NCBI RefSeq assembly: GCF_000372745.1
Contig: NZ_KB889708.1
Location: 124,001-188,000 of the forward strand
Direction: 5' to 3'
DNA: 64,000 nt
From: Embleya scabrispora DSM 41855
GTDB taxonomy: Bacteria > Actinomycetota > Actinomycetes > Streptomycetales > Streptomycetaceae
In this document: in pieces, positions 1,627 to 25,438 of the stretch
Layout: the number at the start of each line of letters is the position of its first letter
Numbering within the stretch: the stretch's first letter is position 1
The notes under the pieces: generated by a model
The model's database searches: none
What the model was told of the DNA's origin: nothing
The model's input: the letters and a program-made list of their open reading frames with translations, nothing else
Program-made: the position numbers and the translations under genes

Positions 1627-1743
1627 ATGGGTACGCACAACAAGCCCACACCGCCCCCGCGACCCGCTCCGGAGCCCTCCCCCGACGGCGACGACCCGAC
1701 GCTGCGCAACCCCGCTCCGGGCACGCGCAAGAAGCCGAAATGA
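1627..1743 (+). CDS. Pro/Asp-rich small peptide, precursor-like (38 aa)
   Basis: ATG at 1627 follows a strong GAGGAGGG ribosome site. The 38-residue product is rich in proline and lysine, contains the acidic patch PDGDDPT and ends GTRKKPK. Its TGA overlaps the ATG of the following methyltransferase remnant as ATGA. The same arrangement (short Pro-rich peptide containing DDP and DG, ATGA overlap, PIMT-like methyltransferase) occurs intact on the minus strand at 21169-22502. I infer that this is a RiPP-type precursor whose modifying enzyme has decayed. Confidence 0.6.
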   Translation: MGTHNKPTPPPRPAPEPSPDGDDPTLRNPAPGTRKKPK

Positions 1744-2404
1744 GCGTCGAGGACGAGCATCCGGGCGGTCGAAGCCCTGCATGCCTTGGGCGAGTTCGAG
1801 CATCCCTGGATGCGCGGGGCGTTCGCGGGGATTCCGCGGCACCGCTTCGTCCCCGACACCGTGTGGATTCCCGACGCGGGCGGCGGGTACCGCGCCCTGG
1901 AACGGTCCGCGAAGCCAAAACGGTGGGCCGAGGCGGTGTACGCGCCGCACGCCGCGTTGCTGTGCGCACGTGCCGGGCCCGACCGGGTGTGCACGGTCGA
2001 GATCGATCCCGCGCTCGCCGCCCGGGCCCGCGAGGCGCTGGAGGCGGCCGGCCGGCGGGTGGACGTGGTGTGCGGGGACGGCGAACTCGGCCACCGCGAA
2101 CACGTGCCGTTCGCGCGGGTGATCGCCACCGCCGCCGTGAGCCGCCTCCCCCACGCGTGGATCGAACAAGCCTTGCCCGGAGGCGTGTTCGTCGCCCCCC
2201 GCGTCGTCCCCTTCCACCAAGGCGGCCTGCTGCGACTCGTCGTCGCCGACGACGGGACCGCGTCCGGCGGCTTCGACGGCGGGGTGAGCCCACCAGCCCA
2301 GGCTCTGGGACTTCCGCGCCACCGTCACCCCACGCGGAACCACCTACCGGGTCGGCAACACCGATCAACCCTTCGCGCGGGACCCCGGCCCACCCGGCCG
2401 ATAG
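1740..2404 (+). pseudogene. Decayed PIMT-like O-methyltransferase
   Basis: Homologous protein is readable only across frames. The ATG at 1740 opens frame MSVEDEHP. The homologous part (RAVEALHALGEFEHPW, then GIPRHRFVPDTVW, then CTVEIDPALAARAREALE) lies in the next frame, which is also the frame of the upstream peptide. A tail WDFRATVTPRGTTYRV lies in a further frame and ends with TAG at 2402-2404. The pieces resemble protein-L-isoaspartate methyltransferase relatives that modify RiPP precursors, but the SAM loop region is damaged. At least two frameshifts make it a pseudogene unless they are sequencing errors. Confidence 0.6.
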
Positions 2405-21168: not shown

Positions 21169-22398
21169 TCAAGGACACATGTCGGAGTGCGTTGCGGGGA
21201 GGGGGTTCGAGGGGTCGTCCAGCCACGCGGTCTGTCCGCTCGCCGTGGCGGTGAGGCCGAAACGAGTGCGTTCTGGGCGGCCGTGGGCGCCCCACCAGGC
21301 GAGTGCGGCTTCGACTTCGGCGAGGATCGGCCGGGGGCCGTGCACCGCGCTCTCGAACACGGTCCCGCCCGGGGTGTGGTCCACGCAGGCCCAGGAGCGG
21401 GATTGCGCGTCGACCAGCCACAGCGTGAACTCGCCGCCGCCTTCTCGTGTCGCGTCCGGGGGTCGGCCGATCGAGCGGCGCACCCCGGGGGCGAACAGGC
21501 CCGTGCAGAACGTGGCGTCGCGGTCGTCGACCAGGAGCCGGGCGTCCAAGGTGGTGGTGCCCGGTGTACCGGGGTCCTGGTCGCGGACGGTGTCCATGAC
21601 GCCGCCGCGCACGCCCTGGCCGCGTTCCCACATGAACGCCGCGTCCCCCACCACTCGCCCGCACGCTCGCGGCCCGGTGGTGTCGGTGTCGATGTCCAGG
21701 GCGAGCAGGACGCCGTTGTACAGGGCGCTGCCCCACGGGGTGACGATCCGGCCCCCGGGGCGGGACTGGGCGACCCACGCCGGCGGGATGGTGTGCACGG
21801 AGAACGTCGACAACACCCGGTCGTACGGGGCGTGTTCGACGCTGCCGCAGGTGCCGTCGCCGATCAGCAGGTGGGGGTGGTGGCCCGCGCGGTGCAGTGC
21901 GCCCCGGGCGTCGGCGGCCACGCGCGGGTCGAGTTCGATCGAGACGACCGCGTCGTCGCCGAGGCGGGTGGCGAGCAGCGCGGCGGTGATGCCCACGCCC
22001 GTGCCGATCTCCAGGACCCGGTGCCCCTCGCGCACGTCGAGGTGGGCGAGCATGGCGGCGACCATGCGCGGCATGCTCGCGCTGCTCGTCGGGCGCAGCG
22101 AGAACTCCGGCGCGTGGGTGCCGTCCTCGACCTGGGTGATCAGTGCGGTGTCGGTGTGGACGAGGGCGTGCCAGCGTGCGGGGTCGTCGGCACGGTCCAG
22201 GCGGTGGTAGCCGTCGGGGGCCGGAACCCGGACACGGTCGGGCACGAACGCGGCGCGGTCCACCCGGGCCCAGGCGTCGGCCCAGTCCGGGGCGAGCCGG
22301 CCGGCGGCGGCGAGCTCGGCAGCCAACGCGGCGGCGTCGGGCACGGTCGCGGGGCTGCCCGAAGCCGCGGGGGTGTCGATGCCGGGAGGAGAGCTCAT
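21169..22398 (-). CDS. PIMT-like O-methyltransferase with C-terminal extension (imiditide-type)
   Basis: The 409-residue protein has a protein-L-isoaspartate methyltransferase domain at about 40-250. It includes the substrate-side segment PTSSASMPRMVAAMLAHL (103-120), SAM motif I RVLEIGTGVGITAALLATRL (127-146) and motif II VVSIELDPRVAA. About 160 extra C-terminal residues are beta-rich and end in an aromatic AALAWWGAHGRPERTRFGL segment. Stand-alone PIMT homologues next to a short charged peptide define imiditides, where the enzyme converts an Asp to aspartimide. The gene overlaps the 35-residue peptide gene by ATGA, so coupled expression and peptide modification are inferred. Confidence 0.8.
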   Translation of the reverse strand: MSSPPGIDTPAASGSPATVPDAAALAAELAAAGRLAPDWADAWARVDRAAFVPDRVRVPAPDGYHRLDRADDPARWHALVHTDTALITQVEDGTHAPEFSLRPTSSASMPRMVAAMLAHLDVREGHRVLEIGTGVGITAALLATRLGDDAVVSIELDPRVAADARGALHRAGHHPHLLIGDGTCGSVEHAPYDRVLSTFSVHTIPPAWVAQSRPGGRIVTPWGSALYNGVLLALDIDTDTTGPRACGRVVGDAAFMWERGQGVRGGVMDTVRDQDPGTPGTTTLDARLLVDDRDATFCTGLFAPGVRRSIGRPPDATREGGGEFTLWLVDAQSRSWACVDHTPGGTVFESAVHGPRPILAEVEAALAWWGAHGRPERTRFGLTATASGQTAWLDDPSNPLPATHSDMCP

Positions 22399-22502
22399 TT
22401 CTCGGGCGGGGCGGGCGGGTTCGGGTCCGGCGGGATCGGTCGTCCGGGCTGCCGACCGTCGCCCTCGACCGGATCGTCCTTACCGCGATGACGTCCGGCC
22501 AT
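22395..22502 (-). CDS. 35-aa putative RiPP precursor peptide
   Basis: ATG at 22502 follows a GAGGGGAG ribosome site. The peptide starts MAGRHRGKDDPVEGDGRQ and ends in a proline-rich tail (PIPPDPNPPAPPEK). It has an acidic cluster with DDP and an Asp-Gly pair, the residue pair most prone to aspartimide formation. Its TGA overlaps the methyltransferase ATG. The decayed pair at 1627-2404 has the same architecture and shares DDP and DG. I infer it is the substrate of the methyltransferase; there is no protease or transporter nearby. Confidence 0.65.
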   Translation of the reverse strand: MAGRHRGKDDPVEGDGRQPGRPIPPDPNPPAPPEK

Positions 22503-23084
22503 GGACGTCTCCCCTCGTGCCGGCCCGATGAACACCACCCACCGTAGGCGCACACACGCACACACGGCGGGGAAGCGTGCGAACCGGGCCGGCCGTCGCC
22601 TGTCGATCGTTCGGCCGGATCGGTGACGCGGTGGCGTGCTCGAACTCGCGTGCCGCGCGGGGTTGTCGCCCGGTGCCCGTAGCCTCCTCGCGGTCGTGTG
22701 CGGATCGGCCGCGCGGCCGGGAATCGTCGCACGAGCAGCGGAGGCCGGCGTGGGAGCGGACGTGTGGGCCGTGGCGGAGGAGTCGGAGCGCACCGTGTGG
22801 TCGTTCGCGCCGTTCGAGCACGTGGGCCCGTCGAGGTTCGGCATGTTTCGAAATGGCCGCGCTGCGGCACGAGAAGGCAACCTGACCCGACCTGCTCCGA
22901 CGACCCACTCGGCTCGGCCACACCGGGCTGGTCAACGGCCTCCAGGTCACCGCTGGCCGTGTCGTAGACCGCGACGGGCGGGGCGTGTCGTTGACGACCG
23001 AACGGATCGGGACACCGCGTTCCGCCTGCGGTTCCGCCTGGTTCGGCCCATGTCGTCCGGGGCCCGTTCATGCATGATGACGGG
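22503..23084. other. No confident gene; possible remnant
   Basis: A plus-strand frame at about 22636-22900 (LELACRAGLSPGARSLLAVV, then GADVWAVAEESERTVWSFAP) has coding-like composition but no recognised family and no natural end, so it may be a fragment. CA-rich simple sequence occurs at 22552-22566. Confidence 0.3.
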
Positions 23085-24425
23085 ATGAACCATAGCGACC
23101 AGCGCTTCCACGTCATCGTGCTGTCGAACTTCGCGAAGGGCTTCGACAAGTATGCGTTCGCCTACGGTAAGGCGGGGATTCCGGAAAGTACCCATCCCGA
23201 CCGGTTCCACCTGCTGACCCGTGCGGAGTTGGGAATCGGCATCGGCAAGGCACGACGCTTGCTGGACCGTCTGGCCATTCCGGGCGATCGGCTGCTGGTG
23301 CTGGAAACCACGGTGGACCCCGACGAGCTGGTGCCCAACGTGTCGACCGGCCTCGGCATGGAACTGCACGAGGCTCGCATCCGGTTGTCAGCGGTCCACG
23401 AACTCGACCAAGTAGGCGACGAGTTCACTCTGCGCCCGACAACCGTCGAGGATGCGATGGCGGCCTCCCTGTACCTGCACGAATCGGCACAGCGTCGCTA
23501 CGCCGACACGCGACCGCGCTCGGTTTCGCTTCTGCCGGTCGCCTCCGCCTGCCAAGCCCGGTGTTCGTTCTGCTTCTCCTCGGCTTCGATCTCCAGCGAC
23601 CAAGCGCCGGCACGGGTCCCGTGGGACGCGGTCGCCCACTGGCTGGAGCGCGCCCGTGCGGCGGGTGCCGAGCGCGCGGTGATCACCGGCGGCGGGGAGC
23701 CCACGCTCATACCGTTCGAACAGCAGCTGCGACTGGTGTCCGCCTGCTCGGCGGCCTTCCCGAAGGTCGTCCTGATCACCAACGCGCACACCCTGGCGAA
23801 GGGCCGGCACGCTGACCGGGCCGGCCGCCTCGCAGCCCTGAGCGCCGCGGGCCTGAGCGTGCTGGCGGTCTCCCGGCACCATCAGGACGACGCCGTCAGC
23901 GAGCGGCTGATGATGCTGCGCACGCCGGTGAGCTCTGTGATCGACACCTGGCGCGTGGGACGTGACCGCTGGCCGGGGCTGCGGATGAGGCTGATCTGCG
24001 TACTCCAGCACGGCGGCGTCGCCGACGCGGCCGAGGTCGCCGACTACCTTTCGTGGGCTGCGGCTCTCGGTGTCGAGGAAGTCTGCTTCAAAGAGCTCTA
24101 CGTATCCACCAGCACCGAGTCGCTCTACTTCGACCGCGCCGCCAACGTCTGGAGCCGAGAGCACCAGGTTTCGCTGTCCATCGTCACCCGATTCGCCGAG
24201 GAGCACGGCCTCGAACCGGCGAGCCGCCTGCCCTGGGGCGCGCCGGTCTACCACGGCAGCTGGGACGGACGGCCGATGCGGATCGCCGCTTACACCGAAC
24301 CCAGCCTGCTCTGGGAACGCACCAACGGGATCGCACGCAGCTGGAACGTCATGGCCGACGGACGCTGCTACGCCTCCCTGGAAGACCGGGCCAGCGAGAT
24401 CGTGCCGGAAGGTGCAACGGCATGA
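23085..24425 (+). CDS. Radical SAM enzyme of unknown function
   Basis: The 446-residue protein has a radical SAM core starting near residue 145. The [4Fe-4S] ligands are Cys156, Cys160 and Cys163 in ASACQARCSFCF, and the SAM-binding GGGEPTL is at 202-208. About 140 N-terminal residues (HVIVLSNFAKGFDKYAFAYG) form a separate domain I do not recognise. A C-terminal Cys in DGRCYAS is single, so a second auxiliary cluster is unlikely. Its stop overlaps the start of a PLP enzyme gene (ATGA), forming a tight two-gene cassette. The substrate and product are unknown. ATG at 23085 is chosen over a GTG/ATG slightly upstream because of the N-terminal composition. Confidence 0.8.
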   Translation: MNHSDQRFHVIVLSNFAKGFDKYAFAYGKAGIPESTHPDRFHLLTRAELGIGIGKARRLLDRLAIPGDRLLVLETTVDPDELVPNVSTGLGMELHEARIRLSAVHELDQVGDEFTLRPTTVEDAMAASLYLHESAQRRYADTRPRSVSLLPVASACQARCSFCFSSASISSDQAPARVPWDAVAHWLERARAAGAERAVITGGGEPTLIPFEQQLRLVSACSAAFPKVVLITNAHTLAKGRHADRAGRLAALSAAGLSVLAVSRHHQDDAVSERLMMLRTPVSSVIDTWRVGRDRWPGLRMRLICVLQHGGVADAAEVADYLSWAAALGVEEVCFKELYVSTSTESLYFDRAANVWSREHQVSLSIVTRFAEEHGLEPASRLPWGAPVYHGSWDGRPMRIAAYTEPSLLWERTNGIARSWNVMADGRCYASLEDRASEIVPEGATA

Positions 24426-25438
24426 GGTTCGACGAGTTCCAGGAATTCCGGCAGCAGCAACTCCGTGCTTCCTCGTCGCTTCTGGACGCCGCCGAGACCA
24501 ACGTGTACCGGGCGCTTGCTCCAATGCGACCGGAACCGCCGACCGGCATGAGTACGGTGCACCGGTGCGATCTCGCCCGTGCCTGGCTGCGGCGCTTCGA
24601 GCTGCCGGAAGAGTGGTCCGGCCACGCCATGGTCTGTCGAGGGGTCCGTCACGGGCTCGGCGTGGTGTTCCACCGGCTGCGCGCCGTGCAAGCGCGGTTG
24701 TGGCTGCCCAGCGACGTGTACCCGGTCTACCTCGAGTTGGCCCGCGCTGCGGGCCTGGCGCCCGCGTCCTACCCGACGCTGCCGGCGCCGGCCCTGCCGA
24801 CGTCGCCGGCGGACCACCGGCCCGAATACCTGCTGCTCGCCAACCCCAGCAAGCCGCTCGGCCGATACCTGTCCGATGCCGAGTGCGCCGCGGTGATTTC
24901 GTGGTTGCGGGTATCACCACGCCGCCGCCTGCTGATCGACAGCGTCTACGACCTGGGAGCCCCGTTCGCTGCCGGCACACGGCGATTGCTGGACACCGGT
25001 TGTGCGGTCCTGCTGCATTCGGTCACCAAGGGATGGCTGTGGCCACGCACGTTCGGCGTGGTCCTGCTGGGTCCGGCACAAGCCGAATTGGCCGAAGCGT
25101 TCCGGGCGGATCCGCCGACGTCGGCACAGCTGAGGCTCGCCGACCATCTGCTGACCGAGCACAGCGACGTGCCCCGGCAGGTCGTCGACGAACTGGCCGC
25201 ACGGGCCGAGCGACTGTTCGAACGGTTGCCGGACGAAGTGCTCGGGACGATTCCCACGGCGAGCCGGACTTGTCCCGGCAACTACTACTTCCCGGTTGAA
25301 ATCCCAGCGGAGACGCTCCAGCGCGAGTGCGGCGTGCTCGCCATGCCGGTCAGCGTGTTCGGGGAGAGCGGTTGGTCCGGCTCCGTCCTGACCAGCCTTG
25401 CCGACGCTTTCGGCCCGACGCCGGCGGTGACACGATGA
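24422..25438 (+). CDS. Fold-type I PLP-dependent aminotransferase-like enzyme
   Basis: The 338-residue protein shows aspartate aminotransferase-fold landmarks: NPSKPLG at 141-147, DSVYD at 173-177 (PLP pyridine-binding Asp and Tyr), and the Schiff-base Lys203 in HSVTKGW. It is shorter than usual class I/II enzymes (about 390 residues) because the N-terminal arm is reduced. It is translationally coupled to the radical SAM gene. Together they probably modify one small substrate, with one enzyme acting on a carbon centre and the other adding or removing an amino group. This is inference, with no known pathway match. Confidence 0.75.
   Translation: MRFDEFQEFRQQQLRASSSLLDAAETNVYRALAPMRPEPPTGMSTVHRCDLARAWLRRFELPEEWSGHAMVCRGVRHGLGVVFHRLRAVQARLWLPSDVYPVYLELARAAGLAPASYPTLPAPALPTSPADHRPEYLLLANPSKPLGRYLSDAECAAVISWLRVSPRRRLLIDSVYDLGAPFAAGTRRLLDTGCAVLLHSVTKGWLWPRTFGVVLLGPAQAELAEAFRADPPTSAQLRLADHLLTEHSDVPRQVVDELAARAERLFERLPDEVLGTIPTASRTCPGNYYFPVEIPAETLQRECGVLAMPVSVFGESGWSGSVLTSLADAFGPTPAVTR

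What the first reader, a model, noticed from the sequence alone, without database searches (positions are those of the whole stretch)
21169..22502. Intact short peptide plus PIMT-like methyltransferase, an imiditide-type RiPP candidate
A 35-residue peptide gene with its own ribosome site overlaps (ATGA) a 409-residue protein that has a PIMT core and an extra C-terminal domain. Known imiditides are RiPPs in which a stand-alone PIMT homologue converts an Asp of a neighbouring peptide to aspartimide. The peptide here has an Asp-Gly and a DDP cluster, and no ATP-grasp or lanthionine enzyme is nearby. The sequence shows the architecture directly; the modification is inference.
Basis: partly seen in the sequence, partly recalled or inferred. 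Interest (0 to 1): 0.8.

Follow-up and report, generated by a model that had tools for sequence, protein, structure and literature searches.

The report
Imiditide (type I pamtide) gene pair
A short peptide gene and the methyltransferase gene beside it form a conserved pair of a recently described kind, which probably turns one chosen aspartate of the peptide into a reactive ring; it is a clear new member of a known family rather than a new kind of system.

Summary
A 35-residue peptide gene (22395-22502, minus strand) with a ribosome site overlaps by ATGA a 409-residue PIMT-fold methyltransferase (21169-22398). The enzyme has the extra C-terminal domain and a WxxxGxP motif, as RiPP-type aspartyl methyltransferases do, and scores below the NCBIfam cut-offs for repair PIMTs and for graspetide and FxLD methyltransferases. 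The peptide is a real gene: in 17 loci seven residues are invariant, including a single Asp, D15 of Asp-Gly, and its own frame alone shows constraint (pN 0.16, pS 0.63). The enzyme tree puts the window beside Yinghuangia, next to a Streptomyces clade with DGHKP-type peptides. No ATP-grasp gene was found in the window. It meets most of the sequence features of imiditides (= type I pamtides, 1,414 listed) that I could test; the weak basic tail is inconclusive, and the modification itself is inferred. Extras: the genome carries seven such pairs and a decayed eighth (also in this window). XRE/DUF397 regulators lie within 5 kb of 11 of 24 imiditide-type pairs in related genomes against 1 of 40 matched controls; the window pair lacks them.

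The parts
22395..22502 (-). imiditide (type I pamtide) precursor gene, 35 aa
   Evidence: conserved in 16 other loci; in-frame constraint
22458..22460 (-). codon of Asp15, predicted site of methylation and aspartimide formation (followed by Gly16)
   Evidence: the one Asp invariant in 17 of 17 peptides; modification itself inferred
22510..22516 (-). GAGGGGA, probable ribosome site of the peptide gene
   Evidence: sequence
21169..22398 (-). peptide L-aspartyl O-methyltransferase (PIMT homologue), 409 aa, start overlaps the peptide's stop by ATGA
21991..22017 (-). SAM motif I VLEIGTGVG (residues 128-136)
   Evidence: sequence and alignment
21274..21294 (-). WGAHGRP, the WxxxGxP motif of the C-terminal domain (residues 369-375)
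   Evidence: sequence; motif described in PMC13001092 (passages)
1627..1743 (+). second, separate imiditide-type peptide (38 aa), the decayed pair of this window
1777..2259 (+). decayed methyltransferase of the second pair: similarity to query residues 29-241 in 161 codons, the stretch that should hold SAM motif I missing
   Evidence: (L019 13778-14260)

Best explanation
A two-gene imiditide (type I pamtide) unit. The ribosome makes the linear 35-residue peptide and, through the ATGA overlap, probably by coupled translation, the methyltransferase. The enzyme uses SAM to methylate the side chain of Asp15; the amide of Gly16 attacks the ester to give an aspartimide (-18 Da), which hydrolyses in time to a mixture of isoaspartate and aspartate. 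Shown here: the genes, their joint conservation, the enzyme family and fold, the invariant Asp15-Gly16, no ATP-grasp gene found in the window. Inferred from the characterised relatives NmaA/NmaM and SpaA/SpaM: methylation, ring closure, hydrolysis, and that the substrate is linear. Unknown: which form is active and what it does. No exporter or protease was recognised among the five neighbouring genes scanned, so a role inside the cell is only a guess.
For: Enzyme: best NCBIfam model is TIGR04188 over residues 25-390 (282 bits), Pfam PCMT, C-terminal domain and fold as in T. maritima PIMT 1DL5 (Z 26.6, rmsd 6.6, 310 residues aligned, model 21-398), WxxxGxP present. Peptide: 35 aa, Pro 28.6%, Gly 14.3%, Asp 11.4%, one invariant Asp in 17 of 17, constraint in its own frame only. 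Enzyme tree: window with Yinghuangia 100/100, then 15 Streptomyces enzymes, 12 of them with DGHKP-type peptides (97/91). An upstream peptide of the kind was found in 23 of 31 named loci. No ATP-grasp match in the window.
Against: No modification measured. No peptide was found in 8 of 31 named loci, among them L049, one of the two nearest enzymes. SpaA needs its last five residues and charge-charge contacts are thought to matter, but this peptide ends PPAPPEK with a weak basic tail and carries about as many acidic as basic residues. D10 is present in 16 of 17, so a second site is not excluded. Enzyme score 282 is nearest to the graspetide model, though under its cut-off.
Confidence: 0.87

Rival explanations
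1. The enzyme is a tailoring methyltransferase for a cyclised peptide (graspetide or lanthipeptide type) and acts on this peptide, or another, only after a ring-forming enzyme encoded elsewhere has worked.
For: The best NCBIfam model is the graspetide-associated TIGR04188; three own-genome methyltransferase loci, L014, L015 and L016, do lie by ATP-grasp genes.
Against: Score 282 under the cut-off of 380; L014 reaches 423, but L015 only 318, so the cut-off separates in part. No ATP-grasp match in the window or in the 31 named loci. The peptide adjoins the enzyme and is conserved with it; it has no Ser, Thr or Cys.
Confidence: 0.05
2. The enzyme is a repair PIMT and the peptide is an unrelated small protein.
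For: PIMT core and fold.
Against: Four repair-enzyme models score 71-91 bits against cut-offs of 159-359; the peptide is conserved together with the enzyme.
Confidence: 0.02
3. An imiditide pair as above, but the modified residue is not D15 alone (D10, or D10 and D15).
For: D10 is present in 16 of 17 peptides.
Against: D15 alone is invariant and precedes Gly, the usual n+1 residue in RiPP substrates of this enzyme family (passages and text).
Confidence: 0.06

Closest known systems
Imiditides / type I pamtides (NmaA-NmaM of Nonomuraea maritima, SpaA-SpaM of Streptomyces sparsogenes)
   Same: Two-gene unit, Gly/Pro/Asp-rich short precursor with a conserved Asp beside Gly and Pro, PIMT homologue with extra C-terminal domain and WxxxGxP
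   Different: Shorter (35 against about 45 aa), weak basic C-terminus, Gly rather than the His of NmaA after the Asp.
Type II pamtides / cysimiditides (FcaA-FcaM)
   Same: Related methyltransferase, two-gene unit
   Different: No CxxCxGxG motif; the peptide has no Cys
Group 13 graspetides with PIMT (graspimiditides, e.g. SsfA-SsfB-SsfM)
   Same: Homologous methyltransferase
   Different: No ATP-grasp gene found in the window; score under the TIGR04188 cut-off
Thermotoga maritima PIMT (PDB 1DL5)
   Same: Core and C-terminal domain align over model residues 21-398
   Different: Described as a repair enzyme; 22% identity

Membership tests
imiditide / type I pamtide | PIMT homologue with an extra C-terminal domain of 100 residues or more | tested here: met
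   model and 1DL5 alignment to residue 398
imiditide / type I pamtide | WxxxGxP motif in that domain | tested here: met
   WGAHGRP, residues 369-375
imiditide / type I pamtide | adjacent short precursor rich in Gly, Pro, Asp | tested here: met
   35 aa, Pro 28.6, Gly 14.3, Asp 11.4%
[quoted passage not shown]
   D15, 17 of 17, in D-G-x-x-P
imiditide / type I pamtide | no class-defining enzyme of another RiPP class in the cluster | tested here: inconclusive
   no ATP-grasp match in 64 kb; five neighbours scanned are others; no dedicated search for lanthionine, lasso or LAP enzymes
imiditide / type I pamtide | charged termini used in recognition (basic C-terminus in SpaA) | tested here: inconclusive
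   window peptide ends PPAPPEK; several homologues end in KK, KR or KKD
imiditide / type I pamtide | methylation of the linear precursor's Asp and aspartimide formation | not testable with these tools
   needs co-expression and mass spectrometry
type II pamtide / cysimiditide | two CxxCxGxG motifs in the precursor | tested here: not met
   no Cys in the peptide
graspetide with PIMT (group 13) | ATP-grasp enzyme in the cluster | tested here: not met
   none in the 64 kb at E <= 1e-3; the model finds 9 of 40 other PAMT loci
graspetide with PIMT (group 13) | TIGR04188 score over 380 | tested here: not met
   282; L014 by an ATP-grasp gene 423, L015 by one 318
FxLD-type lanthipeptide methyltransferase | TIGR04364 score over 320 | tested here: not met
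   112, core only
repair PIMT | repair-enzyme equivalog score (TIGR00080 over 159) | tested here: not met
   81

The most novel reading that the evidence does not exclude
Imiditide pairs are in part output genes of XRE-DUF397 regulatory units: small peptides acting inside the cell whose Asp / aspartimide / isoAsp state is a slow chemical switch or timer, multiplied in some genomes (13, 8 and 14 methyltransferases in three genomes of this genus) as parallel channels. The window pair would be one channel without a local regulator.
Probability: 0.12. Interest if true: 0.75.

Novelty: new member of a known kind. Interest (0 to 1): 0.36.

Why it matters
What aspartimide peptides do is an open question (PMC13001092, conclusion, passage). 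This locus offers a compact pair with one predicted site, in a genome that carries several different pairs. The association of imiditide-type pairs with XRE/DUF397 regulators, which the literature seen here reports for graspetide groups 11 and 13 (PMC13097080, passage), gives a concrete lead on regulation.

Tried and rejected
Radical SAM gene 23070-24425 as a partner: 249 rSAM-PAMT pairs are described, but this gene is divergent, and phmmer (E <= 1e-4) found no counterpart in 40 PAMT loci, 40 controls, 31 named loci and 8 own-genome loci.

S. sparsogenes locus L056 (= L079) as SpaM: its N-terminal frame is broken and I saw no peptide. That genome has nine matches; which is SpaM was not resolved.

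A 46-residue form of the peptide from an upstream GTG was rejected, because the homologues align from the ATG (or GTG) used here; those starts were chosen by me.

Fixed neighbours of the window's clade: clustering 7-kb flanks of 31 named loci and the window gave an XRE-type family in 9 of 31 (10 of 31 by HMM) and no other family in more than 4 loci apart from the methyltransferase.

An own-genome count by eye (DUF397 within 5 kb of 4 of 15 PAMT loci, the latter's list truncated) was replaced by the matched-control test.

Not checked: whether this locus is in the published tables (no look-ups of supplements allowed; the imiditide paper is not held). The Embleya paper was seen in the listing only.

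Full report
Observation. Searches show the 35-residue frame at 22502-22395 and the 409-residue frame at 22398-21169, both on the minus strand, sharing ATGA. GAGGGGA lies seven bases before the peptide's ATG.

Enzyme. Pfam PCMT scores 94 bits on residues 105-224. The best NCBIfam model is the graspetide-associated methyltransferase TIGR04188, 282 bits along residues 25-390 but under its cut-off of 380. Four repair-enzyme models score 71-91 bits against cut-offs of 159-359, and the FxLD model 112 against 320. As a yardstick, own-genome L014, beside an ATP-grasp gene, scores 423, while L015, also beside one, scores 318, so the cut-off separates only in part. The AlphaFold model (27-row alignment, mean pLDDT 87.5) aligns to T. 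maritima PIMT 1DL5 over model residues 21-398 (Z 26.6, rmsd 6.6, 310 residues, 22% identity), C-terminal domain included. WGAHGRP at 369-375 fits the WxxxGxP described for lassimiditide, graspimiditide and imiditide enzymes (PMC13001092, passages).

Peptide. The scan of genome contigs with the enzyme alignment A2 gave 31 loci. A Gly/Pro/Asp-rich peptide was found upstream of the enzyme in 23 of 31. Of these, 14 belong to the window's own peptide family (E-or-G, S-or-G, then D-G-x-x-P-x-x-P-x-P-P); 8 of 31 showed none. With two unnamed loci (L033, L034) and the window this makes 17 peptides. G7, D15, G16, P19, P22, P24 and P25 (window numbering) are invariant; D10 is present in 16 of 17. Over the 23-codon core pooled pS is 0.63 and pN 0.16; shifting the frame gives pS 0.18-0.19 and pN 0.30. 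The pairs are pooled over related loci, so this is a contrast, not a test on independent samples.

Phylogeny. In a 40-row tree the window enzyme groups with two Yinghuangia soli enzymes (100/100), one with the peptide and one (L049) without, and these with 15 Streptomyces enzymes (97/91), 12 with the DGHKP-type peptide and 3 with none seen. The DGHKP label needs 4 changes against 10.4 on average for shuffles. The other three genomes of the genus have no close counterpart (best 44-46% identity). In the family sample 16 of 297 genomes, the own one included, have a match at E <= 1e-75, so the pair is patchily distributed.

What it works like, and membership. From PMC10787088 (parts 1-4 of 5 read) and PMC13001092 (part 1 of 5, section 10 and passages): enzymes of this class methylate an Asp of a linear precursor; the ester closes to an aspartimide, which hydrolyses to isoAsp and Asp. 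Type I precursors have about 45 residues and are rich in Gly, Pro and Asp; 1,414 are listed. Four defining features tested by sequence or model are met; two are inconclusive (no dedicated search for lanthionine, lasso or LAP enzymes; weak basic C-terminus); the chemistry is not testable here. Type II pamtide, graspetide, FxLD and repair-PIMT criteria that I tested are not met.

Genome setting. The own genome has 16 matches at E <= 1e-25. Seven have an upstream peptide of this kind: the window pair and those on contigs 2, 122, 169, 5, 112 and 105, the last with its enzyme cut by the contig end. An eighth, at 1627-2259 of this same window, has an intact peptide and a decayed enzyme. At E <= 1e-50 the three genomes of the genus have 13, 8 and 14 matches; of the 22 other family genomes 21 have 0-7 and one (G020) has 13. 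Only the best 78 candidates per genome were scored there.

Regulator lead. For 40 PAMT loci in eight genomes of the family (G001, G002, G007, G010, G015, G017, G018, G020) I fetched about 5 kb on each side, and 40 control stretches 60 kb away on the same contigs. DUF397 was found in 14 of 40 against 1 of 40, XRE-DUF5753 in 14 of 40 against 1 of 40. By type, either gene was found in 11 of 24 imiditide-type, 3 of 9 graspetide and 2 of 7 orphan loci against 1 of 40 controls (one-sided Fisher 3e-5, 0.016, 0.054). The loci are not all independent. Carter et al. (PMC13097080, passages) report DUF397/DUF5753 with graspetide groups 11 and 13. The words DUF397, DUF5753 and XRE do not occur in the main text of the two imiditide/pamtide papers held, and a library search for DUF397 with aspartimide gave only PMC13097080. 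The founding imiditide paper is not held, so I cannot say that the link is unpublished. The window itself has no DUF397 or XRE-DUF5753 match in its 64 kb.

Verdict. A well-supported new member of a known, recent RiPP class. The class is known and its function is not; the regulator association and the many different pairs per genome are the useful leads.

Noticed in passing
window 1627-2259 (+): A second imiditide-type pair: intact 38-aa peptide MGTHNKPTPPPRPAPEPSPDGDDPTLRNPAPGTRKKPK followed by a decayed methyltransferase that lacks the SAM motif I stretch; an XRE-cupin-like gene lies upstream at 697-1305.
   Followed up: partly
window 23070-25438 (+): Radical SAM gene followed by an aminotransferase-like gene, divergent from the pair; no counterpart in the loci searched.
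   Followed up: partly
L124, L134, L158, L160, L168, L055: An XRE-DUF5753 regulator gene lies directly upstream of and in the same direction as the imiditide-type peptide and methyltransferase.
   Followed up: partly
L026 / L099 (own genome contig 169): Peptide MGEHKSPIPSDGNQPGRPIPPPILPDKPPNPGTPKKDK shares DGxQPGRPIPP with the window peptide, though the two enzymes are only about 40% identical.
   Followed up: no
L027 and L028 (own genome contigs 5 and 112): Two related pairs (peptides starting MPGDHGG) each lie near a large gene that resembles a component of ABC-three-component defence systems; the resemblance is recalled, not tested.
   Followed up: no
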